NCBI GenBank assembly: GCA_001724275.1
Contig: MEDZ01000002.1
Span: 62,001-126,000, forward strand
Source: Gemmatimonadetes bacterium SCN 70-22
Lineage (GTDB): Bacteria; Gemmatimonadota; Gemmatimonadetes; Gemmatimonadales; Gemmatimonadaceae
Direction of reading: 5' to 3'
Length of the DNA: 64,000 nucleotides
Numbering within the stretch: the first letter of the stretch is position 1; each line of letters starts with the position of its first letter. The notes below the pieces were generated by a model. The model made no database searches. It was not told the DNA's origin and saw nothing but the letters and a program-made list of their open reading frames with translations. Below, one piece after another: positions 26,514-36,362 of the stretch. The position numbers and the translations under genes were made by a program.

Positions 26514-27101
26514 ATGGTGCCCACCTACTTCTCCTCCCCCGGCGAATGGCGCGCGTGGCTGGCGCGGCATCACGCATCGGCCACGGAGATCTGGGTCGGT
26601 TTCCACAAGGTGGGGACCGGGAGGCCGTCGCTCACCTGGCCGCAGTCGGTGGACGAGGCGCTTTGCTACGGGTGGATCGACGGCATAAGGAAGCGGGTCG
26701 ACGACGAGCGGTACGTCATCCGCTTCACGCCCCGGAAGCCAACCAGCACCTGGAGCGCGGTGAACATCAGGCGTGTCGCCGAACTCGAGGCGCTGGGGCA
26801 CATGCGCGAACCCGGCCGCAAGGCGTTCGCCGCGCGCCGGGAGGAGCGATCCGCGACCTACTCCTACGAGCGGCGCCCCACCGCGTTCGGCGAACCGTAT
26901 GCGAAGGCGTTCCAGAAACACCGGGCTGCGTGGACGTTCTTCGAAGCCCAGCCGGCCGGCTACCGCGGGACGGCGATCGCGTGGGTCATGAGCGCCAAGC
27001 AGGAGGCGACGCGGGAGCGGCGACTCGCGCAACTCATCCAGGACTCGGCGCAGAAGAAGCGACTGTCGCTCCTGGCGCGGACGAATGGCTCGTCCGCGTA
27101 G
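26514..27101 (+). CDS. YdeI/OmpD-associated (OmdA) family protein
   Basis: The 195-aa product begins with the family signature VPTYFSSPGEWRAWLARHH, then the conserved WPQSVDEALCYGWIDGIRK block (~residues 42-60) and RFTPRKPTSTWSAVNIRRV. The C-terminal half contains the helical AWTFFEAQPAGYRGTAIAWVMSAKQEATRERRL region. Members are small cytoplasmic proteins implicated in envelope stress or antimicrobial peptide tolerance, with no known enzymatic activity. It is divergent from phoD. Confidence 0.83.
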   Translation: MVPTYFSSPGEWRAWLARHHASATEIWVGFHKVGTGRPSLTWPQSVDEALCYGWIDGIRKRVDDERYVIRFTPRKPTSTWSAVNIRRVAELEALGHMREPGRKAFAARREERSATYSYERRPTAFGEPYAKAFQKHRAAWTFFEAQPAGYRGTAIAWVMSAKQEATRERRLAQLIQDSAQKKRLSLLARTNGSSA

Positions 27102-27122
27102 CGCGCGGTGGTTTCGGAACGC

Positions 27123-28457
27123 TCACGGCACCTGAAACGGCGTCATCGGCGCGAGGTACCAATCCGCCGCCGAGTCACGCGTGCGCTGCAGGATGGCCCG
27201 CCCGCTTCGTAGCGTGCGAGCCACACGACGATGCAACGAATACGGTCCCGCCCCCGGAAGCAGCCGAGCCGTCTCGGCATCGAGCGACGGTAGCAGCGTT
27301 GGCGGGCACGCAGGATACAGCGAGGGCTGTGTGCGATCCGCCGAGAGGACGTCCAGCACTGCCGTCTTCGGAATCCGAACGAAGTCGGAGCCACCCGACC
27401 AGATGGCGTTGAACTGCCTGGGGAGCGTATCGAGCGCCAGCGGTGCCGCCAGACCGTAGATCGGGCTGGTTTCGTACGCTATCCAGCCGTGCCCGTCCAC
27501 GTCGAGCGTGTATGGGCCGACGCTGATGACATTCGGTACAGCGGGATTGTCAACGTCGGAGCGACCGATGAACTCGAAGTTTGCCATGAAGTCTGCCATG
27601 GAGAAATCGTGGAAACCCGGCTGATCCGGAGCGACGCGGCGGTGATCGATCGCATCCGTGACCGCCAATGCAGACTCTCCAGGCTGGAGGGAACGAGCGT
27701 CAGGCGGGAAGCGATAGATCCGCTGTGCCCAGATCCCGCCGGGGTCTCGCATCAGAGGAGCGAAGGTGGAGCAGCTGTTCACCGGATTGGCGGACGAGTA
27801 GTCCCGCCAGTTGGGCAAGGCCGAGACGAAGAGGACGTTCGCGAGCGATATCGTACTGTCAGCGTTGTTGTGTATGCGCAAGTAGTTGGCGAATCGGTAG
27901 GCTACTCCTCTGACATCCTCGAGCACGAGCGGCGCGAGTTCGCTCACGAGCAGTGACCCGCGCTCCGGCCGGACGAGCCGAAGGCTCTCCCTTGCGTCTT
28001 CCTCGACGTCAAGCGTCACCGTGACTCGCGCGGTGAACATCGTTTCATCGCCAAGTGCATCTCCAGCAAGGGAGATCTCACGCTCCGTCAGTGTCCGAAT
28101 CGCGGTGATGGCATAGTCACCGGCCGCCCGGTTGCGGAATAGCGCCACGCCCATCGTGTCCGCATATAGGGAGTCTGGCGCAGCGTCCGGCGGCGTCAGC
28201 CGCTGTACTACCACCAACGCCCCGGGGACGCTCTCACCGGGCCATCCGAGCCTTGCCGCGGCAGTCGCGAGTTCCGGCGGCGATACGACGCGGACCGTGA
28301 GCGCCAACGTTGCCGGATCACTGCCGACGACGCGTCGTGGATCACACGCGATGGCCAGGGGCGCCACGACAGCCAAGAGCGCGGAGCGCCACCGCACCGG
28401 TCGCCTTGGTGAGACCACCGTGGTGCGCGAGCACCTGTTCTGTAGCGCATCCTGCAT
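27123..28457 (-). CDS. DUF4876-like exported lipoprotein, copy 1
   Basis: About 444 aa from the ATG at 28457; a GTG at 28418 would give a more usual signal length. A hydrophobic signal ends at a lipobox-like LAIAC (Cys38). Residues ~45-165 are a beta-sandwich-like domain of the type found in surface lipoproteins (LTVRV, VLVVVQRLTPP-like strands). The rest matches the DUF4876 pattern known from Bacteroidota: FANYLRIHNNADSTISLANVL, WRDYSSANP, IWAQRIYRFP, LQPGESALAVTDAIDHR and FHDFSMADF. Its C-terminus (RDSAADWYLAPMTPFQVP) nearly matches that of the next copy, including a 40-bp identical DNA stretch. GC is visibly lower than in flanking genes. Confidence 0.78.
   Translation of the reverse strand: MQDALQNRCSRTTVVSPRRPVRWRSALLAVVAPLAIACDPRRVVGSDPATLALTVRVVSPPELATAAARLGWPGESVPGALVVVQRLTPPDAAPDSLYADTMGVALFRNRAAGDYAITAIRTLTEREISLAGDALGDETMFTARVTVTLDVEEDARESLRLVRPERGSLLVSELAPLVLEDVRGVAYRFANYLRIHNNADSTISLANVLFVSALPNWRDYSSANPVNSCSTFAPLMRDPGGIWAQRIYRFPPDARSLQPGESALAVTDAIDHRRVAPDQPGFHDFSMADFMANFEFIGRSDVDNPAVPNVISVGPYTLDVDGHGWIAYETSPIYGLAAPLALDTLPRQFNAIWSGGSDFVRIPKTAVLDVLSADRTQPSLYPACPPTLLPSLDAETARLLPGAGPYSLHRRVARTLRSGRAILQRTRDSAADWYLAPMTPFQVP
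27136..27175. repeat. 40-bp perfect direct repeat, copy 1 (3' end of DUF4876-like gene 1)
   Basis: This segment is identical to 28651-28690. It encodes the shared SAADWYLAPMTP region at the C-terminus of the two paralogous lipoproteins, whereas most of the rest of the genes has diverged. Confidence 0.9.
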
Positions 28458-28543
28458 TACCACTCGCCAAGATGACTTCACTCGAGAGGAGCGCAACTCA
28501 CGCGTGCTTGACACCGCATGCCTCGCCGTCCCTTCGCAAGATG

Positions 28544-28637
28544 TCAGTAGTAGCAGTTGCAGCACCTCGACAGCGGCCGTAAGCCCACCCTCCTATGCGA
28601 AGCTGACCCGGGGTGGCGCGCGGCGGTCTCGAAGTGC
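28544..28637 (-). pseudogene. Decayed copy of the Cys-rich peptide gene
   Basis: Reading the minus strand, the last 20 bases before the TGA at 28546-28544 match the 3' end of the peptide gene at 30061 with one difference and encode CCNCYY. Further upstream GTGGGCTT and CCGCTGTCGA also match the intact gene, but the intervening segment has a short insertion and the ~30 nt encoding TGFCQGPGGE is deleted. No start codon or signal-peptide part remains because the DUF4876-like gene 2 ends at 28638. It is a relic of a tandem duplication of peptide plus lipoprotein. Confidence 0.7.
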
Positions 28638-29894
28638 TTACGGAACTCGCAACGGCGTCATCGGCGCGAGGTACCAATCCGCCGCCGAGTTGCGCGACCT
28701 CTGTAAGATGACTCTACCGCTTGGGAGTGTTCGGGCCACGCGACGGTGTACCGACATCGCACCCCCTCCTTCCGGGAGGATCCGCGCCTCTTCCGCGTCG
28801 AGCGACGGGAGAATTGCCGGACGACACTCTGGATAGGGTGACGACCGCTCAAACGCGGTGGAGAGAACATCCAGTATCGCGGCCGTCGGAATGCGTACAA
28901 ACGGGGCCCCGTCCGCGTAAGGTGTGCTTTGCCTTGGAAGTGTATCGAGGCGGAGGGGAGATGCGAGGAGGTAGATCGCGCGCAGATCATACGCCATCCA
29001 CCCGTGCCCGAGCGCCACGTCGCCACTTCGTGGACCAACGCTGTGCATGTTCGGCACTGACGGATTGTCGACATCTGCAGTACCGATGAACTCGAAGTCC
29101 GCCCCGGTGAAGTCATGAAAGCCGGGAGAACCACCTCCGATCGGGCGATGGTCCACGGCGTCCGTTACCACGAGTGCGGCCTGCCCCGGCAGAAGGACCC
29201 GTGCGCCCGGCGGGAACTGATATATCCGCTGCGCCCACACGCCGAGCGGATCTCGCTCGAGGCGCTCTCGGATGTCACAGTTGTTGTCGGGATTGGCGGA
29301 CGAATAGTCACGCCAGCTGGGAAAGGCGGGAATGAACAGCTTGTCTGCGAGTGCGATGACGGTGTCGGTGTTGTTATAGATCCGGAAGTAATTGCTGTAG
29401 TAGTAGTACACTCCCTTCGCCGGATCCTCCTGTGCAAGTGGTGAGAACTCACTGAACAGCAGAGACCCCTGCTCCAGCGGGGCAAGTCGGACCTCGGCAA
29501 ATTGATCGTCCACCTCACCCAGCTCCGCAGTAGCGGTGCTGGTGAACACGGTGTGGTCCCCGACGGCCGAGCCGGCGGCGGCAATCTCGGCGTCCGACAG
29601 CGATCGAGACGCCGTGATGTTGTAGGCGCCGCTCACGAGGCTTCGAAACCGCACTTCCCCTCGTTCGTCGGTCTGTGCCGTGTCCGACGGTGTAGGCGGC
29701 GAAGTGAGGCGGGTGAGAACGACCACCGCAGTGGGCACAGCATTCGACGTCCACCCCAAGCGCGCCGCCGCCAGTGCAAGTGACGGCGGCGCGGTGACAC
29801 GGACAGTCAGAGTCAGCTGTGCTGCGTCGCCAGAGACGGTGCGTCGGCCCTCGCAGCTTGAGGCAAGACACGCCGCCATCACCAGCGATGTCAT
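28638..29894 (-). CDS. DUF4876-like exported lipoprotein, copy 2
   Basis: About 418 aa from the ATG at 29894, which yields a compact lipoprotein signal (MTSLVMAACLASSC, Cys14). The plan is the same as in copy 1: VTAPPSLALAAARLGW and an N-terminal beta-sandwich to ~residue 140, then YYYSNYFRIYNNTDTVIALA, WRDYSSANPDNNC, VWAQRIYQFPPGARVL, LPGQAALVVTDAVDHR and FHDFTGADFEFIG. The two copies align along their full length but differ at many positions, so the duplication is old, with the last 40 bp kept identical. It is probably anchored in the outer membrane next to the receptor and barrel encoded upstream. Confidence 0.78.
   Translation of the reverse strand: MTSLVMAACLASSCEGRRTVSGDAAQLTLTVRVTAPPSLALAAARLGWTSNAVPTAVVVLTRLTSPPTPSDTAQTDERGEVRFRSLVSGAYNITASRSLSDAEIAAAGSAVGDHTVFTSTATAELGEVDDQFAEVRLAPLEQGSLLFSEFSPLAQEDPAKGVYYYYSNYFRIYNNTDTVIALADKLFIPAFPSWRDYSSANPDNNCDIRERLERDPLGVWAQRIYQFPPGARVLLPGQAALVVTDAVDHRPIGGGSPGFHDFTGADFEFIGTADVDNPSVPNMHSVGPRSGDVALGHGWMAYDLRAIYLLASPLRLDTLPRQSTPYADGAPFVRIPTAAILDVLSTAFERSSPYPECRPAILPSLDAEEARILPEGGGAMSVHRRVARTLPSGRVILQRSRNSAADWYLAPMTPLRVP
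28651..28690. repeat. 40-bp perfect direct repeat, copy 2 (3' end of DUF4876-like gene 2)
   Basis: Identical to 27136-27175; the distance between the two copies (1515 nt) is the duplication unit of peptide plus lipoprotein gene. Confidence 0.9.
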
Positions 29895-30060
29895 CCGCCA
29901 GGCAATGGCGTGCCTGAAGCCATTGGTTGGTCGCACCTCGGCGTGAGCGCGGCTCTGACTGCCATGTGTCGACAGGGCGCTCCAACTCGGCGTGTGCACC
30001 GGTAAGATCCCCGCCGCGTCGCCGACGGTGCCTACCCCTACGATGCCCAGCATCAAGTGC

Positions 30061-30297
30061 TCAGTAGTAGCAATTGCAGCACTCGCCTCCTGGACCCTGA
30101 CAGAACCCTGTCGACAGCGGAAAGCCCACGTCGCAAAGCGCCTGGCACGCTTCGGTCGTGCAACCAGGAAAGTAGTAGTGACACAACAGCTCTTGAGGTT
30201 GCGCCTTGAGTGGTACAAGAGCCGCACTGAGTCCGATGCCCGCCATCACAGCTGCGAGTATGAAGCTGGCCTTCGCGGGAGAATACTTCGCACGCAT
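30061..30297 (-). CDS. Secreted cysteine-rich small peptide ending CCNCYY
   Basis: The 78-aa precursor has a basic N-region, a hydrophobic stretch (ASFILAAVMAGIGLSAALV) and a likely signal cleavage after LKAQ (residue ~33). The ~45-residue mature part contains eight cysteines (39, 46, 51, 55, 66, 73, 74, 76), few charges and an aromatic end, and would be cross-linked or modified outside the cytoplasm. A GGAGG ribosome-binding site lies 6 nt before the ATG. It sits 43 nt downstream of a membrane thioredoxin gene and upstream of a DUF4876-like lipoprotein gene, and a relic of its 3' end lies beyond that lipoprotein. I recognise no family. Signal peptide plus Cys-rich tail beside a TlpA-type gene recalls the NVEALA peptides of Bacteroidota, without sequence identity that I can see. 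Confidence 0.75.
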   Translation of the reverse strand: MRAKYSPAKASFILAAVMAGIGLSAALVPLKAQPQELLCHYYFPGCTTEACQALCDVGFPLSTGFCQGPGGECCNCYY

Positions 30298-30340
30298 GTC
30301 TCGCCTCCGATGAATGAGGTATCACGGAATGAGCCGCGGG

Positions 30341-30946
30341 TCAGTCCGACACGCCGAAGCGTCCGCTGACCGCTGCTGACGGCCGTCCCAGCACTGCCGT
30401 CAGCACAGAATCGACACTCGCGCGCGTCACGAGCGCCCCAGCGCGCGTGAACACCGCACGACCCGATGAGTCGATCACCATCAACTGCGGTACCGCGCGC
30501 ACACGATACAGCAAAGCGAGTCGAAGGCTCGGCATGGTGAGCACCGGCACGTCGAGCGAGAGGCTGTCGGCGTATCGTCGAACGAGTTCCGCCGAATCGA
30601 GGCCAATGAGAAGCAGGGCCCCTGAACGACCGGTCGCGCTCGTGAGCTCGGCATCGAGACGTCGAAGCTGCTCGAGCGAAGCGCCGCAGTAACCGCACGT
30701 CGTGGTGAAAAAGAAGACGACTTGCCGCAGGTCGCCAGCCGGCGTTCCGACGAGAATGGAATCGCCGCTCACGCTCGTTGTCGTGAAGGCGGGGACCAAC
30801 ATTCCAGGATGCGGTTCCGTGAATCGTCGCATCAGTCCGCGATTGCGCGCCTCGAGCGTGCGAATCCGCAGGCCCAGCGCCATCACCGTCGCCGCCAGCG
30901 CGATCACGAATACGGCGACTGGCAGTGAACGACGTTGTACGTTCAT
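30341..30946 (-). CDS. Membrane-anchored thioredoxin-fold (TlpA-like) oxidoreductase
   Basis: The 201-aa product starts at the ATG at 30946 behind GGAGGG. One N-terminal transmembrane segment (residues ~8-27) anchors a periplasmic thioredoxin fold with active site TTTCGYCGAS (Cys84, Cys87), the expected IGLDSAE strand and a cis-Pro loop in AVPQLMVID (Pro153). TlpA/ResA-type proteins reduce or exchange disulfides in the periplasm. Directly downstream lies the eight-cysteine peptide gene, making that peptide the obvious client; this is inference from position. A short charged stretch after the anchor (RTLEARNRGL) may be a coiled-coil linker. Confidence 0.85.
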   Translation of the reverse strand: MNVQRRSLPVAVFVIALAATVMALGLRIRTLEARNRGLMRRFTEPHPGMLVPAFTTTSVSGDSILVGTPAGDLRQVVFFFTTTCGYCGASLEQLRRLDAELTSATGRSGALLLIGLDSAELVRRYADSLSLDVPVLTMPSLRLALLYRVRAVPQLMVIDSSGRAVFTRAGALVTRASVDSVLTAVLGRPSAAVSGRFGVSD

Positions 30947-31056
30947 GCCCGACCCTCCCAATGTCCGCCACTCGCACCGACACCCACACGCCGCCTCATA
31001 CTCCATCGTAACTGCGCACGTGACAATGCGCACTGACCGTACGGGCCAACCGACCT

Positions 31057-31623
31057 CTACAAGCCCCCAACAGATGCGTTGCGTTCGAGCCTCAGCGTCA
31101 CGCCCGCATCCTGTGACTCACGCCCAGGCGCGTCACCGCACGACCTCGTCCGCGTCCGAATCTGCGTGCGCAAGATCTCGACAGCGGCCGGAGTTCCGCC
31201 TTGCAGGCGCAGCTGACCCGGGGTAGTGCCCGCGTAACTCCTGAAAAGATGGACGATCGCCGCGGATCCATCGCGCCGTGTTCGCACGGCCACTTGCTCC
31301 AGAGTCAGCCCAGCTTCATGGTATCGACACGCCACCAGAAGCTTAGCCCAGGCAAGCACGTACCTGGGCGAGCAAAGTCCAGCCCTGTCGAGCCGGCGGT
31401 GCAGCGTGCGGCGTGAAACACCAACGGCACGGGAAAGCCCCTCTCGGTCACGACACCAAGCTGATTCACGAATGGCAACTGTCAACACCCGCAGCGCGTG
31501 ATGTGACAGCTCGCCGGTGAGCGCATGCTCGACCATCCGCGCAACGACTTCTCTATCGTTTCGCGCACCGCTTTGCGACTCGTCATGTGAAGACGGCTCA
31601 CGGCGCGCCATGCGGCCGCACAC
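31057..31623 (-). CDS. AraC-type helix-turn-helix regulator, short form
   Basis: The 188-aa frame has no obvious ligand domain. Its core is a double helix-turn-helix of AraC type: GLSRAVGVSRRTLHRRLDRAG (~residues 63-83), then LTLEQVAVRTRRDGSAAIVHLFRSYAGTTPGQLR (~104-137). The N-terminal 30 residues overlap the end of the barrel gene by 26 nt, so an internal ATG at 31536 (MVEHALTGE) may be the real start. Its place inside the island, between the barrel and the thioredoxin genes, suggests it controls this locus. Confidence 0.75.
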   Translation of the reverse strand: MCGRMARREPSSHDESQSGARNDREVVARMVEHALTGELSHHALRVLTVAIRESAWCRDREGLSRAVGVSRRTLHRRLDRAGLCSPRYVLAWAKLLVACRYHEAGLTLEQVAVRTRRDGSAAIVHLFRSYAGTTPGQLRLQGGTPAAVEILRTQIRTRTRSCGDAPGRESQDAGVTLRLERNASVGGL

Positions 31624-33226
31624 TCAACGAAATCGTCCATGCGCCTCGACTCCCCCGAGGGAGATAGTACGCATCCATCGCACGCTGCGTCGCCGCGGTG
31701 CTCGACCATGCGGCCCGAAGCACCACCATGCGGTTCTCTCCATCGCGCCGAATCGTGATCGCGCTCCCGATGGTGCGCGCCGGTGCCGCCGCGACCTCGA
31801 AGGCGGGAGCCAGCAGCGCCAGGTATGACGCGCTGCGCGCGGTCAACGACGGTATGATCGCAATCGGCGTGTAGTGCCCCATGGCCACGCCGGCACCGGC
31901 GGTCCACCCGCGGCGCCAACGCCGACTCACCTCGAGGCTTCCTGCGGGGCTCCACGCCGTGATGTCCGTGGCGCTCCGAGCGCCCCGATCCGTGGCCCGC
32001 TGCCACTGTCGTACCGCGTCCACCGTTATCGCCCCCCCCCACGCGGAGCCGGTCGGCGACCACCGTGCATCGCCGTGAAGGGCCGCGCGACTCGCGTCGG
32101 ATTCGAACTCCCGTGTCGTGGCCGGGGTCCGCACGCTGGCCCCGCGCTGCACCACGGCCGTGGCAACCGTCGAAAGCATCACGGCGCCAAACCGTCCCTG
32201 CGACGCGATGCCGAGGTCGTAGCCCGTGGTATTCCATCGCTGCACGGGCGTGTTGGCCGCCACGGCGCTCACTTGTCGTTCCCCTGTGCGCAGGCGCTGT
32301 ACCCACGTGCTCCATTCGATGGCACGCCATCGCCCGGCCGCATCGACGCCGATACCCTCACCCCATCGGTCGGCGCGTCGCAGGAATGGAGTGCTCGCCG
32401 GCGAGTAGTCCTGGGGATTCACATTCAGGAATCCGTCGAGCAGATACAGTCGGGCGGTAGCGGGATTCGCGAACACGTTCGCGGTCTCGTTGCGCGAGAT
32501 GCGGCGCGCACTCACCCCCACGCGACCGTGCTCCCCAAGTGTTCGCGCCAGCCCCAAGCTGGCGCCGCCCACGGCGGCACGCCGGATGACAGCGATCGTG
32601 GATCCCCGCGCGTTGTCGGAGGTCCCGCTATAGCCGAGCGAAATGCCCATCCGCCAGCGCCCGAGCGCGACGCCCTGCGCACCTTCGAACGTCACCCGCG
32701 TTCGGGCCGTCGCCGGCGCGTTGGTGTCAGTGGGGACGAAGGGACTCGACGGGTCTGGTAGCACGAACACGGCGCCGTTCCCTTCGCCCTGCTCACCTCG
32801 CTCGACCGCCGCTCGCCCAATCACGGCGCTTCGGTTGCCGAGACGTCGCCACCCGCCATACTCTGCCAGGAGCCCCGACATACGGCGGGGAGTCAACGGA
32901 GCGCGGTAGGTACCCTGGATACCGCTATTGACCAGCGAGAGCTGCGCATAGGTCTCACGCACATCATCGCTCATTCCCGCAGGATTGCGCGCGCTCCACG
33001 CAAGGCCAACGACTGGCGCCGGGAGATCGAGGAGGTGCGGGGTCCGAAGCGGGCCAGGCGCCGGAAGTCCGACCTCACCAACGGTGCGCAGCGGCGTCCA
33101 CGCCCAGCGCCACGGAGAGTCGCCCAACACGCCGGTATCCTGCGCCGCGGCAGCACGGCATAGCGCGCCCGCAGGAATCGCGAACGCCACGACAGCCAGC
33201 GCGCTCCTCAAGACGCGCACACTCAT
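31598..33226 (-). CDS. Outer-membrane beta-barrel protein, DUF6850-like
   Basis: The 542-aa product has a signal peptide (LRSALAVVAFAIPAGALCRAAAAQ). The rest is made of alternating hydrophobic/hydrophilic strands with Arg/Tyr-rich turns and ends in a beta-signal-like strand, as in porin-sized barrels. Length, composition and position next to a TonB receptor and DUF4876 proteins match the DUF6850 barrels seen with these partners in Bacteroidota; that identification is by context more than motif. Its start overlaps the receptor stop by 4 nt (ATGA), so translation is coupled. A run of nine G on the coding strand (32032-32040, codons ~396-398) could allow slippage. Confidence 0.72.
   Translation of the reverse strand: MSVRVLRSALAVVAFAIPAGALCRAAAAQDTGVLGDSPWRWAWTPLRTVGEVGLPAPGPLRTPHLLDLPAPVVGLAWSARNPAGMSDDVRETYAQLSLVNSGIQGTYRAPLTPRRMSGLLAEYGGWRRLGNRSAVIGRAAVERGEQGEGNGAVFVLPDPSSPFVPTDTNAPATARTRVTFEGAQGVALGRWRMGISLGYSGTSDNARGSTIAVIRRAAVGGASLGLARTLGEHGRVGVSARRISRNETANVFANPATARLYLLDGFLNVNPQDYSPASTPFLRRADRWGEGIGVDAAGRWRAIEWSTWVQRLRTGERQVSAVAANTPVQRWNTTGYDLGIASQGRFGAVMLSTVATAVVQRGASVRTPATTREFESDASRAALHGDARWSPTGSAWGGAITVDAVRQWQRATDRGARSATDITAWSPAGSLEVSRRWRRGWTAGAGVAMGHYTPIAIIPSLTARSASYLALLAPAFEVAAAPARTIGSAITIRRDGENRMVVLRAAWSSTAATQRAMDAYYLPRGSRGAWTISLSVRPHGAP
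32032..32040 (-). repeat. Poly-G(9) tract inside the outer-membrane barrel gene
   Basis: Nine consecutive C on the plus strand (G on the coding strand) encode Trp-Gly-Gly-Ala. It is the longest homopolymer I see in the window; loss or gain of one base would truncate the barrel after about residue 395. Confidence 0.85.
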
Positions 33227-36057
33227 CTTGCGAGGGCTCGCGGCATCAGCGGGAGCGTGATTTCGAGGCCGAATCGACTGCGAGGAAAGAGGCGCCCCAG
33301 GCGCCCACTCCGTGAGGGTTCACCCAGTCGATCGAGCGCATTGAATGCATAGAACGAGAGCCGGCCGCTCCCGAGAACTGTCTTGGTGAGTTGTACGCTG
33401 AGCAGCCAATCGGGTGGCGGCGACGCCGGGATGGTGACCAGCCCCTGCCTCGGCCGTCGCAGATCGGCGTACTGCGCCTCCACTCGCGCGCTCGCCGGCA
33501 CCGCGACCAACTCTCCTGTACGGGTCACATACCCGCGCCACGCCAGCGTATCGGATGCCCCCTCCTGCACGTTGCGCTCGTGCAGGAAGTACTGCAGCGT
33601 CCCCGTGATGACGAGTCCGAGCGCAGGCTGATGGTGCACGACACGCGCAGTAGCCAGCGATCGTTCGCCACGCTGCCGATCGCCCCGCCAGTACGCCGTT
33701 CGTGACTGGCGTGGATCGAGCTGGAACTGCGCAAGTCGCGAGAACGGGCCGAAGTCGAGCGCGTCGTTCACGAGTCGCGTCACGGCCCACGCTCCTGTGA
33801 TCTCGGCACGCAGATGCAGAGCAGGAATCTCGGGCAGCGAGAACGTCCATTCGACTCCGGTATTGGTTATTGCATTGAGGTTCGCCGGTACATCCACAAA
33901 TACCGGTACGGTGTCAGCCGACGTCGGCGTGGCGGAGTACGTGGGTGGACGTCCACTTCCGATCGTGGTATCGGAGAGCGTGAATCGGCCACGCATCAGG
34001 TGCGATGGTCGAGCCTCGAACCCCACGCCGCCGCGCGTTTCATCGCGAAAGCCCACCACGCTCACAGCGGCGCCGCTGTGCCCGAGATCGATCTCGATCC
34101 CGACCTCGTGCTTGCGTGCGATCGCCAGTCCCAGTCGTGCATTCGTCGGGTCGACGATCGACGTCGTGAGCACCGCCAATCGCTCGGCGGGGTTCGGCGG
34201 GAACCAGTTCACGTTCACGACGTCGAAGTACTGCGGGGCGGGGTAGAGATCGCCCGTCGTCGGCTGCTTCGCGGTGATTCCCAGTCCCCCACGCAGGCGG
34301 AGCCAGGGACGGGGGGCAACCTCGACGCTGATGCGGGGCTGGACTGCCGCATCCCGCGCGCTGGAGCTCCACCATCCTCCCGAATGCAGCGCGTCCACCC
34401 TGACACCCGCCTGGACGTCGAACGCGCCTCGCGTCCAGAGCGAGCGGGTCAGCCGCGCGTCCAGATATACCGCGCTCGACGCAACCGGTGGCACGGCGTC
34501 GAAGCGCCGAGGACGGTCGTAGCCGTTGATACCATTGAAGGCGACCTGCGGTGGCGACGCAATGTCGAATTGGTATCCGGCGCCGCCCGTCCAGTCTCGC
34601 CGTAACTCCACACCCGCCCGGAGTGTGCGCACACCGCCCCACGCGTCTCCCGGAAGTACTCCCTCGGCGCGCGTGTACAGGTGCCACGGAAGCCCTTGCA
34701 GCTGCAAGGCCGCAAGGTACGTCCCCTGAACGAACCGCCCCACGCTCGTTCCGGGCGTCAGGCGATCGGTGAACGGCTCGGCGCCGCGTATCACGTACTG
34801 CTGCGCGCGGCTCAACTGCCATTCATGCTCCAGCGAGGCGGTGACCTCGATGTGACGCCGTGCGGCCATCCCGAACCGCGCTCGCTCCGCCAGTCGCACG
34901 CCCCCGCTTCGATCTTCACTCGACAGCCCGGGGCGCACGTCGCGTTGTTCCGGTTCACTCCGATAGACCTGAAACGCGCTCAGGCGGGTGTCCAGAACGA
35001 CCGGACCCTCATCGACCCTGGTTCCGAGAGGATCGTCTTGCGCACGCGAGCCCTTCACGAGTCGGTGCGCGACATTCAGCGCCCCACGCCATACCGAGGC
35101 ATCGCGTACTCCCGGTGCCACCTGGGTGCGCGTGAGGTCGGAGGTGATCGATACGTCCTGTCGTGCCGACTGCGCGCGACCGCTCGCCAACGCGCCCCCC
35201 GTGGTGCTCGGATCGAAGCGACCCACGACGTCGGTCGGGAGGGCGCCCGCCCGGGTTTCGATCACGATCGCGCCAGCGGTAAGGTCACCATAGCGCGCTG
35301 ATGGTACGCCGCGGATTACCTCCACGCGCTCGAGCATCGTGGCCGGGATTCGTCGAAGATCGATGCTCCCTCCCGCTGCCGTGCCAAGCACGAATTCGCC
35401 GCGCGGCCCGGTGGACTGGAGGTTCGCATTGTTCGACATCGGAACGCCGTTCATCACGATGAGCGTGCCAAACGCGGACGTGCGCTCGGCAATCCCGCTC
35501 GGAGTGGGCACCGCGCGAAGCGCCACCTGCTGTGTGCCCTCGAGGCCCGGAGTCTGCAGCGGAATGCCGGGGAGCAGTTCGAGCAGGCCTGCGAGGCTCA
35601 CGGCATTCTGGACCTGGATGGCATCGCGATTGATCACGGTCGCAGTGCCGAGTTCGCCACGAGCTCGCCCAATGCCCTCGGCGGTAACCCGGACCTGGGG
35701 CATCTGCAGGGCAGTCCGCGCCAGCTCCACGTCGCGCACGATGCGGCCGATCGCGGGGACGGTGACGGGAACGCGCGCGAGCGAATAGCCGAGCGCCCGC
35801 ACGACGAGCACCTGCGGCCCCGGAGGCACGGCGGACAGCCGATACACACCGGCGCTATCGGTGCGCGCGCTCCGAGCTAGTCCATCAATCGAAACGGTCG
35901 CTTGGCCGATGCCGCGACCCGTCGCCGCCTCGACGACTCGACCGGTGATGAAGGCGCCTGCCTGGGCCTCGGCCCGGAGTGCGCCGAAAGCGAGGACACT
36001 CGCCCCCAAAAGACCACAACAGCCTCGTCGCGCCAGCCACCGCCGCAGGGATAGCAT
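33223..36057 (-). CDS. TonB-dependent outer-membrane receptor with carboxypeptidase-regulatory-like N-terminal domain
   Basis: About 944 aa. ATG at 36057 follows GGAGGG, better than a TTG four codons upstream. A signal peptide ends near AEAQA (~residue 33). Residues ~36-115 are a CarboxypepD_reg-like domain (ITGRVVEAATGRGIGQATVSI, then VPPGPQVLVVRALGYSLARV). The plug follows at ~120-270 (INRDAIQVQNAVSLAGLLELLPGIP, VEVIRGVPSARYGDLTAGAIVIET). The last ~670 residues are the 22-strand barrel ending SRFGLEITLPL. It takes up a scarce ligand across the outer membrane with TonB energy; the substrate is unknown. It is the first gene of the island, and its promoter is recognisable. Confidence 0.9.
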   Translation of the reverse strand: MLSLRRWLARRGCCGLLGASVLAFGALRAEAQAGAFITGRVVEAATGRGIGQATVSIDGLARSARTDSAGVYRLSAVPPGPQVLVVRALGYSLARVPVTVPAIGRIVRDVELARTALQMPQVRVTAEGIGRARGELGTATVINRDAIQVQNAVSLAGLLELLPGIPLQTPGLEGTQQVALRAVPTPSGIAERTSAFGTLIVMNGVPMSNNANLQSTGPRGEFVLGTAAGGSIDLRRIPATMLERVEVIRGVPSARYGDLTAGAIVIETRAGALPTDVVGRFDPSTTGGALASGRAQSARQDVSITSDLTRTQVAPGVRDASVWRGALNVAHRLVKGSRAQDDPLGTRVDEGPVVLDTRLSAFQVYRSEPEQRDVRPGLSSEDRSGGVRLAERARFGMAARRHIEVTASLEHEWQLSRAQQYVIRGAEPFTDRLTPGTSVGRFVQGTYLAALQLQGLPWHLYTRAEGVLPGDAWGGVRTLRAGVELRRDWTGGAGYQFDIASPPQVAFNGINGYDRPRRFDAVPPVASSAVYLDARLTRSLWTRGAFDVQAGVRVDALHSGGWWSSSARDAAVQPRISVEVAPRPWLRLRGGLGITAKQPTTGDLYPAPQYFDVVNVNWFPPNPAERLAVLTTSIVDPTNARLGLAIARKHEVGIEIDLGHSGAAVSVVGFRDETRGGVGFEARPSHLMRGRFTLSDTTIGSGRPPTYSATPTSADTVPVFVDVPANLNAITNTGVEWTFSLPEIPALHLRAEITGAWAVTRLVNDALDFGPFSRLAQFQLDPRQSRTAYWRGDRQRGERSLATARVVHHQPALGLVITGTLQYFLHERNVQEGASDTLAWRGYVTRTGELVAVPASARVEAQYADLRRPRQGLVTIPASPPPDWLLSVQLTKTVLGSGRLSFYAFNALDRLGEPSRSGRLGRLFPRSRFGLEITLPLMPRALAR

Positions 36058-36362
36058 GAGTCCCTCCAATGCCTAGCAGCGCATTGCCGCCTCCTCCACA
36101 TCACGCACCGCGCCGGATTGCAGTCGTTCGGCGCGGTCCCTCTCTCGCCTCATACCGATCGCCGGCGCATTGACCAGCCACGGCGGACTCGACTCGCGAG
36201 AGTATCGACGCGCCTGAACTCCGTGTCAAGCACCGGGGGTCGATGTTCACTCGCAGCGGGCGTATCGGGCCCTGCCTGCCTTCTCCCGTCGGTTCACAGT
36301 GGGGTGCACTCTGCTGGCGCACGCCGTCTAGCCGCACACTGCATCAGGTTGGCCCCCGGCAA
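36058..36362. other. 305-nt intergenic region upstream of the receptor operon
   Basis: Apart from the promoter at 36201-36229 and the receptor ribosome-binding site near 36062, I see no gene or RNA element. Both flanking genes are on the minus strand, so this region also holds the 3' end of the serine hydrolase transcript's upstream neighbour space, with no clear terminator. Confidence 0.5.
36201..36229 (-). promoter_or_regulatory. Sigma-70-like promoter of the TonB receptor operon
   Basis: Minus strand: a perfect -35 TTGACA (36229-36224), a 17-nt spacer, then GATACT (36206-36201, 4 of 6 consensus matches). It would start transcription near 36195, giving a leader of roughly 135 nt before the receptor ATG. 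Confidence 0.6.

What the first reader, a model, noticed from the sequence alone, without database searches (positions are those of the whole stretch)
30061..30297. Novel eight-cysteine secreted peptide with CCNCYY terminus
The 78-aa frame has a strong GGAGG site, a signal peptide and a mature part in which 8 of ~45 residues are cysteine, ending in C-C-N-C-Y-Y. I know no bacteriocin, metallothionein or RiPP family with this ending. The even number of cysteines fits four disulfides, or thiol ligands for metal.
Basis: partly seen in the sequence, partly recalled or inferred. Interest (0 to 1): 0.7.

Follow-up and report, generated by a model that had tools for sequence, protein, structure and literature searches.

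The report
Defensin-fold peptide paired with TonB uptake genes
The cysteine-rich frame is a real gene of a family of secreted bacterial mini-proteins predicted to fold like plant defensins and scorpion peptides; here its gene sits beside its own redox helper and beside surface genes of a nutrient-uptake type, a setting that no paper found here describes for such peptides.

Summary
The frame is real and lies on the minus strand (30297-30061): a 78-aa pre-peptide with a GGAGG site, a signal peptide and 8 Cys. A direct protein search found nothing convincing, but synteny then profiles uncovered a family: 20 of 395 Gemmatimonadota genomes at E<=1e-5 (12 of the 20 gave alignment rows, 8 did not), and 92 unique peptides in the loci collected. 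Spacing, Pfam and PDB profile matches, shuffle controls and an AlphaFold2 model all say CSαβ fold (cis-defensin/scorpion-toxin-like). The eight-Cys form is the six-Cys core plus one extra pair; cysteines are lost in pairs that fit the CSαβ bonds, so disulfides are favoured over metal thiolates. This branch is acidic (-4 here), unlike classical cationic defensins. It travels with a membrane thioredoxin-like gene (44 bp upstream here), a DUF4876 lipoprotein gene, a DUF6850 gene and a TonB receptor. In one genome DUF4876 and peptide genes alternate one to one; the window keeps a relic of a second peptide. Best reading: a disulfide-locked extracellular partner of the DUF4876/TonB surface system, with an antimicrobial role as the main rival. 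Fold confidence about 0.93, partner role about 0.45. A new variant of a known kind.

The parts
30061..30297 (-). Cys-rich pre-peptide, 78 aa, ATG, ending CCNCYY, stop included
   Evidence: translation; family alignment; RBS
30202..30297 (-). signal peptide (about residues 1-32, cut inferred near LKA-Q)
   Evidence: hydrophobic stretch and A at -1; inferred, no signal-peptide program available
30064..30201 (-). mature peptide, CSαβ framework, net charge -4
   Evidence: AlphaFold2 (mean pLDDT 82.9; helix 16-26, strands 31-35 and 41-45); charge
30341..30946 (-). TlpA/MauD-like membrane-anchored redoxin, CGYC
   Evidence: Pfam Redoxin 7.6e-7 and AhpC-TSA 4.5e-6; 44 bp upstream of the peptide
28638..29888 (-). 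DUF4876 lipoprotein, copy a (start uncertain; longest ORF runs to 30227)
   Evidence: Pfam PF16215 2.2e-7; AlphaFold2 and Foldseek match to 4q1z, E 5.5e-22
27123..28514 (-). DUF4876 lipoprotein, copy b
   Evidence: Pfam PF16215 4.2e-7; 62% DNA identity to copy a
28537..28620 (-). relic: AraC-gene 3' tail joined to a peptide 3' tail (CCNCYY codons 28564-28547) before DUF4876 copy b
   Evidence: 64 bp at 75% to 31170-31232; 29 bp at 86% to 30054-30082
31057..31623 (-). AraC-type HTH_18 regulator
   Evidence: Pfam 8.3e-10
31598..33226 (-). DUF6850 protein
   Evidence: Pfam PF21012 2.4e-12
33223..36069 (-). TonB-dependent receptor with carboxypeptidase-regulatory-like N-terminal domain
   Evidence: Pfam Plug 1.8e-13, CarboxypepD_reg 1.8e-14; subfamily alignment

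Best explanation
The gene makes a secreted mini-protein of the CSαβ fold held by four disulfides (three core bonds plus an extra one, probably C1-C6). It is exported by a signal peptide (inferred), oxidised outside the inner membrane with help from the redoxin encoded 44 bp upstream (inferred from adjacency), and then works outside the cell as the dedicated partner of the DUF4876 surface lipoprotein and its TonB receptor, for example as a ligand-capturing or complex-forming subunit of an uptake system (inferred). Gene, family and gene pairing are shown; the fold is well supported by prediction; partner role and cargo are not shown.
For: Fold: 58 peptides scanned in Pfam gave SLR1-BP 13, Defensin_2 12, Gamma-thionin 10, Toxin_2 7, Toxin_3 5 at E<=0.1; fully shuffled controls 0 of 58 in these families, Cys-fixed shuffles 1 of 58. 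PDB profile: 132 matches at E<=10, the best 60 shown all CSαβ, best 2.2e-4; the 16-row, mostly eight-Cys set alone also gives defensins and toxins; shuffled profile 0. AlphaFold2 pLDDT 82.9. Cysteines: 49 six-Cys, 38 eight-Cys, 3 nine-Cys, one 5, one 4 of 92; CCxC in 28 and CxxCC in 8 of 38, never both; one member lacks exactly C2 and C5, another the equivalent core pair, the CSαβ 1-4 bond. Partnering: redoxin within 1.5 kb upstream for 23 of 41 peptides with 8-9 Cys and 1 of 51 others; DUF4876 within 1 kb for 24 of 92, 23 of these within 421 bp, in both orientations; alternating DUF4876/peptide genes in one genome; distance matrices correlate, r 0.56 over 24 pairs and 0.54 over 7 pairs inside one genome; a relic peptide end beside the second DUF4876. 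Relatives of the TonB/DUF4876 genes are listed in iron-dependent stimulons of Porphyromonas and Bacteroides (PMC10434189, passages).
Against: Most six-Cys relatives stand alone or in tandem arrays without redoxin or DUF4876, so the fold does not need that partner. DUF4876/TonB loci of Bacteroidota and other phyla in the scan show no such peptide, so the uptake genes do not need the peptide either. Some Gemmatimonadota loci also lack it, and the window's copy b lost its peptide. Foldseek E-values are weak (best 0.52) and VIA Z at most 3.8, which may partly reflect the 46-residue length. Tandem duplication of whole units alone could give the correlated distances. Most of the unlinked group comes from one bacterial family, so the redoxin test is confounded by descent.
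Confidence: 0.45

Rival explanations
1. It is a defensin-like bacteriocin: the peptide kills or inhibits neighbours, the redoxin folds it, and the DUF4876 lipoprotein gives self-protection.
For: CSαβ fold; close peptide-lipoprotein pairing; tandem arrays with a fast-changing mature part in one family; actifensins with the same fold are bacteriocins (PMC6989792, search listing with start of abstract).
Against: The DUF4876-linked branch is acidic, mean -4.3 and never above 0 in 24, whereas classical defensins are cationic. DUF4876 is found with TonB receptors where no peptide exists. No dedicated exporter was seen among the six neighbour genes scanned.
Confidence: 0.3
2. It is a secreted metal-binding peptide (metallophore or metallothionein-like) re-imported through the TonB receptor.
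For: TonB locus; iron-dependent expression of related operons elsewhere (PMC10434189); acidic surface; the title and abstract start of PMC7557933 name some plant defensins as metal-binding (search listing).
Against: Even Cys number and paired Cys losses favour disulfides over thiolate clusters. No metallothionein profile matched the real peptides.
Confidence: 0.15
3. It is a structural or signalling peptide of the cell surface unrelated to uptake, next to the TonB genes only by locus history.
For: Orphan copies exist; G+C is lower over 27-32 kb, which fits a mobile island.
Against: Pairing with DUF4876 survives inversion of gene orientation and recurs in many loci.
Confidence: 0.1

Closest known systems
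Bacterial cis-defensins, classes I-V (xanthusin and others; PMC11561630, abstract and first part of the Results read)
   Same: CSαβ framework, signal peptide, GxC; class III there also has a fourth bond written as Cys 1-6
   Different: That paper lists 74 peptides from Proteobacteria, Acidobacteria and Actinobacteria, and the words Gemmatimon and Longimicrob do not occur in its text; here TonB/DUF4876/redoxin genes adjoin, the CCxC ending is common and the charge acidic
Actifensin / actinodefensin (NCBIfam NF038042; PMC6989792, listing only)
   Same: CSαβ framework; 10 of 58 members touch the model at E<=0.1, best 9.3e-5
   Different: No Gemmatimonadota genome of 395 passes its cut-off; the window peptide does not match at all
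Plant gamma-thionins and scorpion K-channel peptides (PDB)
   Same: Best PDB profile matches; listed VIA matches, best Z 3.8
   Different: Eukaryotic; fourth bond of plant defensins joins the first and last Cys (per PMC11561630), here probably C1-C6
MauD, partner of the Cys-rich methylamine dehydrogenase small subunit (role recalled)
   Same: Redoxin gene beside a Cys-rich exported protein; MauD is the top NCBIfam hit, E 3.6e-5
   Different: 23.3 bits against a cut-off of 188.6, so not a MauD
DUF4876/TonB operons of Bacteroidota (PG1019-22, BT3625-33; PMC10434189 passages; structure 4q1z of BT_1938)
   Same: TonB receptor plus DUF4876; Foldseek E 5.5e-22
   Different: No CSαβ peptide found beside the Bacteroidota-type loci scanned

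Membership tests
CSαβ / cis-defensin superfamily | Core framework C...C-x3-C...C...C-x-C | tested here: met
   spacing 6-4-3-10-6-0-1 holds the core
CSαβ / cis-defensin superfamily | One helix packed on a beta hairpin | tested here: met
   AlphaFold2 H16-26, E31-35, E41-45, pLDDT 82.9; predicted, not solved
CSαβ / cis-defensin superfamily | GxC gamma-core | tested here: met
   GFC in the window peptide; GxC in 86 of 92 members
CSαβ / cis-defensin superfamily | Disulfide pairing of the core | tested here: inconclusive
   paired losses fit; bonds not measured and model coordinates not available
CSαβ families of Pfam (each single model) | Profile match above the curated cut-off | tested here: not met
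   window peptide: only SLR1-BP, E 0.024, 15.5 against 22.7 bits; the family as a set matches at lower E, so it is placed by fold and framework, not as a member of one Pfam family
Actinodefensin NF038042 | Score above 65 bits | tested here: not met
   0 of 395 genomes over the cut-off; no match for P0002
Bacterial cis-defensin class III (PMC11561630) | Fourth disulfide between Cys 1 and 6 | tested here: inconclusive
   the extra pair is C1 plus the Cys before CxC by spacing; bond not measured; the paper also writes 1 and 5 in one place
Classical antimicrobial defensin | Cationic surface | tested here: not met
   net charge -4; DUF4876-linked set -7 to 0
Classical antimicrobial defensin | Antimicrobial activity | not testable with these tools
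   needs the folded peptide
Metallothionein | Thiolate metal cluster | not testable with these tools
   indirect evidence against: paired Cys losses
RiPP | Modifying enzyme beside the precursor | tested here: not met
   the Pfam scan covered the peptide and six neighbour genes; none is a known maturation enzyme apart from the redoxin

The most novel reading that the evidence does not exclude
The defensin (CSαβ) fold has been recruited in a Gram-negative phylum not as a weapon but as the dedicated, disulfide-locked extracellular partner of a TonB/DUF4876 surface uptake machine, with its own redox chaperone and co-duplicating one-to-one with the lipoprotein; arrays of six-Cys cousins in the same phylum would then make Gemmatimonadota a rich and previously unrecognised reservoir of the fold.
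Probability: 0.35. Interest if true: 0.85.

Novelty: new variant of a known kind. Interest (0 to 1): 0.62.

Why it matters
Bacterial cis-defensins are few in print (74 peptides in three phyla in PMC11561630; PMC8819291 found them only in actinobacteria and myxobacteria). Here 92 unique family members come from a sample of one further phylum, some in arrays of up to nine genes, with a redoxin and a surface lipoprotein as recurring neighbours. That bears on where the defensin fold comes from and gives a testable non-antimicrobial role for it.

Tried and rejected
Direct protein search of 60 relatives: no other match better than E 0.043, apparently chance. NCBIfam on the single peptide: none. Actinodefensin model over the phylum: 9 of 395 at E<=0.01, none over the cut-off, some with stops inside, so not used as family evidence. 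Promoter and terminator consensus scan of 29880-31100: 0 and 0. The 97%-similar locus L093 ends just after the redoxin gene, so no close orthologue could be compared; its genome gave no peptide match. Literature: gemmatimonadetes+defensin (29 papers, 15 listed), gemmatimonadota+defensin (11, 8 listed), longimicrobium+cysteine-rich (1) showed no such peptide family; the last paper mentions ranthipeptide clusters as cysteine-rich, a different thing. A work reported in PMC11561630 as finding defensin-like peptides in many bacterial phyla (Dash and coworkers) could not be read, so earlier mention of this phylum there is not excluded. Rows dropped before counts: two doubtful HMM rows before the 84-peptide reference list, and hits with fewer than 4 Cys before the 92.

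Full report
OBSERVATION. The frame at 30061-30297 reads on the minus strand as a 78-residue protein with a hydrophobic N-terminus and 8 Cys in the last 40 residues, GGAGG 6 nt before ATG.

NEIGHBOURS. On the same strand, upstream to downstream: TonB receptor, DUF6850, AraC-type regulator, TlpA-like redoxin, peptide, DUF4876 copy a, DUF4876 copy b. Between the DUF4876 copies a short relic joins the 3' tail of the AraC gene to the 3' tail of a peptide gene, with the same CCNCYY codons. It suggests that an AraC-redoxin-peptide-DUF4876 unit was once doubled and the second redoxin and peptide lost. The region is 63-66% G+C over 27-32 kb against about 70% around it.

FAMILY. A single-sequence search of 60 relatives gave nothing convincing. 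Searching DUF4876 instead (25 of 395 genomes at E<=0.001) and scanning the flanks showed short signal-peptide ORFs with the same Cys order next to DUF4876 and redoxin genes. Their alignment (16 rows) found 37 of 395 genomes at E<=0.05 and 20 at E<=1e-5; 12 of these 20 had supplied rows, the other 8 are independent. One family (f6) holds up to 14 matches per genome, which is the cap of candidates scored, and tandem arrays of up to nine. A further genome, reached through L097, has 8. In all 92 unique peptides were gathered.

FOLD. Members read C...C-x3-C...GxC...C-x-C. Of 58 scanned, several defensin and scorpion-toxin Pfam families matched; full shuffles matched none of these families, Cys-fixed shuffles one in 58, so more than cysteine content or spacing is shared. 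The PDB profile search listed only CSαβ chains among the best 60 of 132; the 16-row, mostly eight-Cys profile alone did likewise among 60 shown of 90; the shuffled profile found none. AlphaFold2 on the mature window peptide with 11 relatives gave one helix and a hairpin at pLDDT 82.9, pTM 0.58. Foldseek's best matches are plant defensins and scorpion peptides at E above 0.5 (77 matches at E<=10, none at E<=0.001, a few unrelated larger proteins among those listed). VIA gives Z up to 3.8 with 89 of 129 chains at Z>=2. These values are weak, which the 46-residue length may partly explain, but nearly all listed rows are of one fold.

CYSTEINES. Of 92 members 49 have six Cys, 38 eight, three nine, one five, one four. 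The nine-Cys peptides carry one Cys in a lipobox-like spot (sequence reading), so may have eight free. The eight-Cys forms add an N-terminal Cys and one more, either just before the final C-x-C (CCxC, 28 of 38) or just before the second helix Cys (CxxCC, 8 of 38), never both; two have another arrangement. One member keeps the rest but lacks exactly C2 and C5, another lacks the equivalent core pair: the CSαβ 1-4 bond. The five-Cys member lost a single helix Cys, against the pattern. On the whole this favours disulfides; bonds were not measured.

PARTNERS. A TlpA-like ORF lies within 1.5 kb upstream on the same strand for 24 of 92 peptides, 18 of them within 102 bp: 23 of 41 with 8-9 Cys against 1 of 51 with fewer, Fisher p 1.3e-9. 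Shared descent inflates this, and contig ends hide some neighbours. DUF4876 lies within 1 kb of 24 of 92 (23 within 421 bp), on the same or the opposite strand. In the genome of L097 DUF4876 and peptide genes alternate. Peptide and DUF4876 distances correlate (r 0.56 over 24 pairs, r 0.54 over 7 within that genome); duplication of whole units alone could also give this. DUF4876-linked peptides are acidic (mean -4.3, n=24) against -0.8 for the other 68. DUF4876 copy a folds confidently and matches the solved DUF4876 protein BT_1938; 14 of the 24 paired DUF4876 ORFs show a lipobox-like motif by a simple pattern.

DISTRIBUTION. Of 67 named loci with related TonB receptors, 19 have the Gemmatimonadota type (42% identity or more) and 10 of these hold a peptide; several of the other nine are cut by contig ends. 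None of the remaining 48 holds a family peptide. Elsewhere, TonB/DUF4876 operons are listed in iron-dependent stimulons with large fold values (PMC10434189, passages).

MECHANISM. Shown: gene, family, gene pairing. Well supported: fold. Inferred: secretion, oxidation by the neighbour redoxin, work as partner of DUF4876/TonB. An antimicrobial role is the main rival; the acidic charge speaks against a classical one. Close pairs mostly evolve with dN below dS, while some arrays in f6 have mature parts with dN near dS and a conserved signal peptide, so orphan arrays may do another job, perhaps antagonism.

NOVELTY. Bacterial cis-defensins are known (PMC11561630, abstract and first part of the Results read; PMC8819291, passages; PMC6989792 and PMC12284004, search listing). 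My searches listed no paper describing them in this phylum; the work of Dash and coworkers cited in PMC11561630 was not read. Hence a new variant of a known kind.

Noticed in passing
window 28537-28620: Relic joining an AraC-gene 3' tail to a peptide 3' tail between two DUF4876 genes: fossil of a doubled unit.
   Followed up: yes
window 27000-31999: G+C of 63-66% against about 70% around it; the locus may be an acquired island (no DUF4876 match in same-genus genome G002).
   Followed up: no
L189-L222 (family f6): Orphan tandem arrays of six-Cys CSαβ peptides, up to nine in a row (L213), with conserved signal and faster-changing mature part.
   Followed up: partly
L233, L234, L235: Peptides with nine Cys, the first in a lipobox-like ATGC: possibly lipid-anchored members.
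   Followed up: no
L099: Record labelled Gammaproteobacteria carries the Gemmatimonadota TonB/DUF6850/redoxin locus at 48% identity: probably a misbinned assembly.
   Followed up: no
L096 9945-10127, L105 15960-16178 and 17115-17303: Other short Cys-rich signal-peptide ORFs of unknown kind in the same loci.
   Followed up: no
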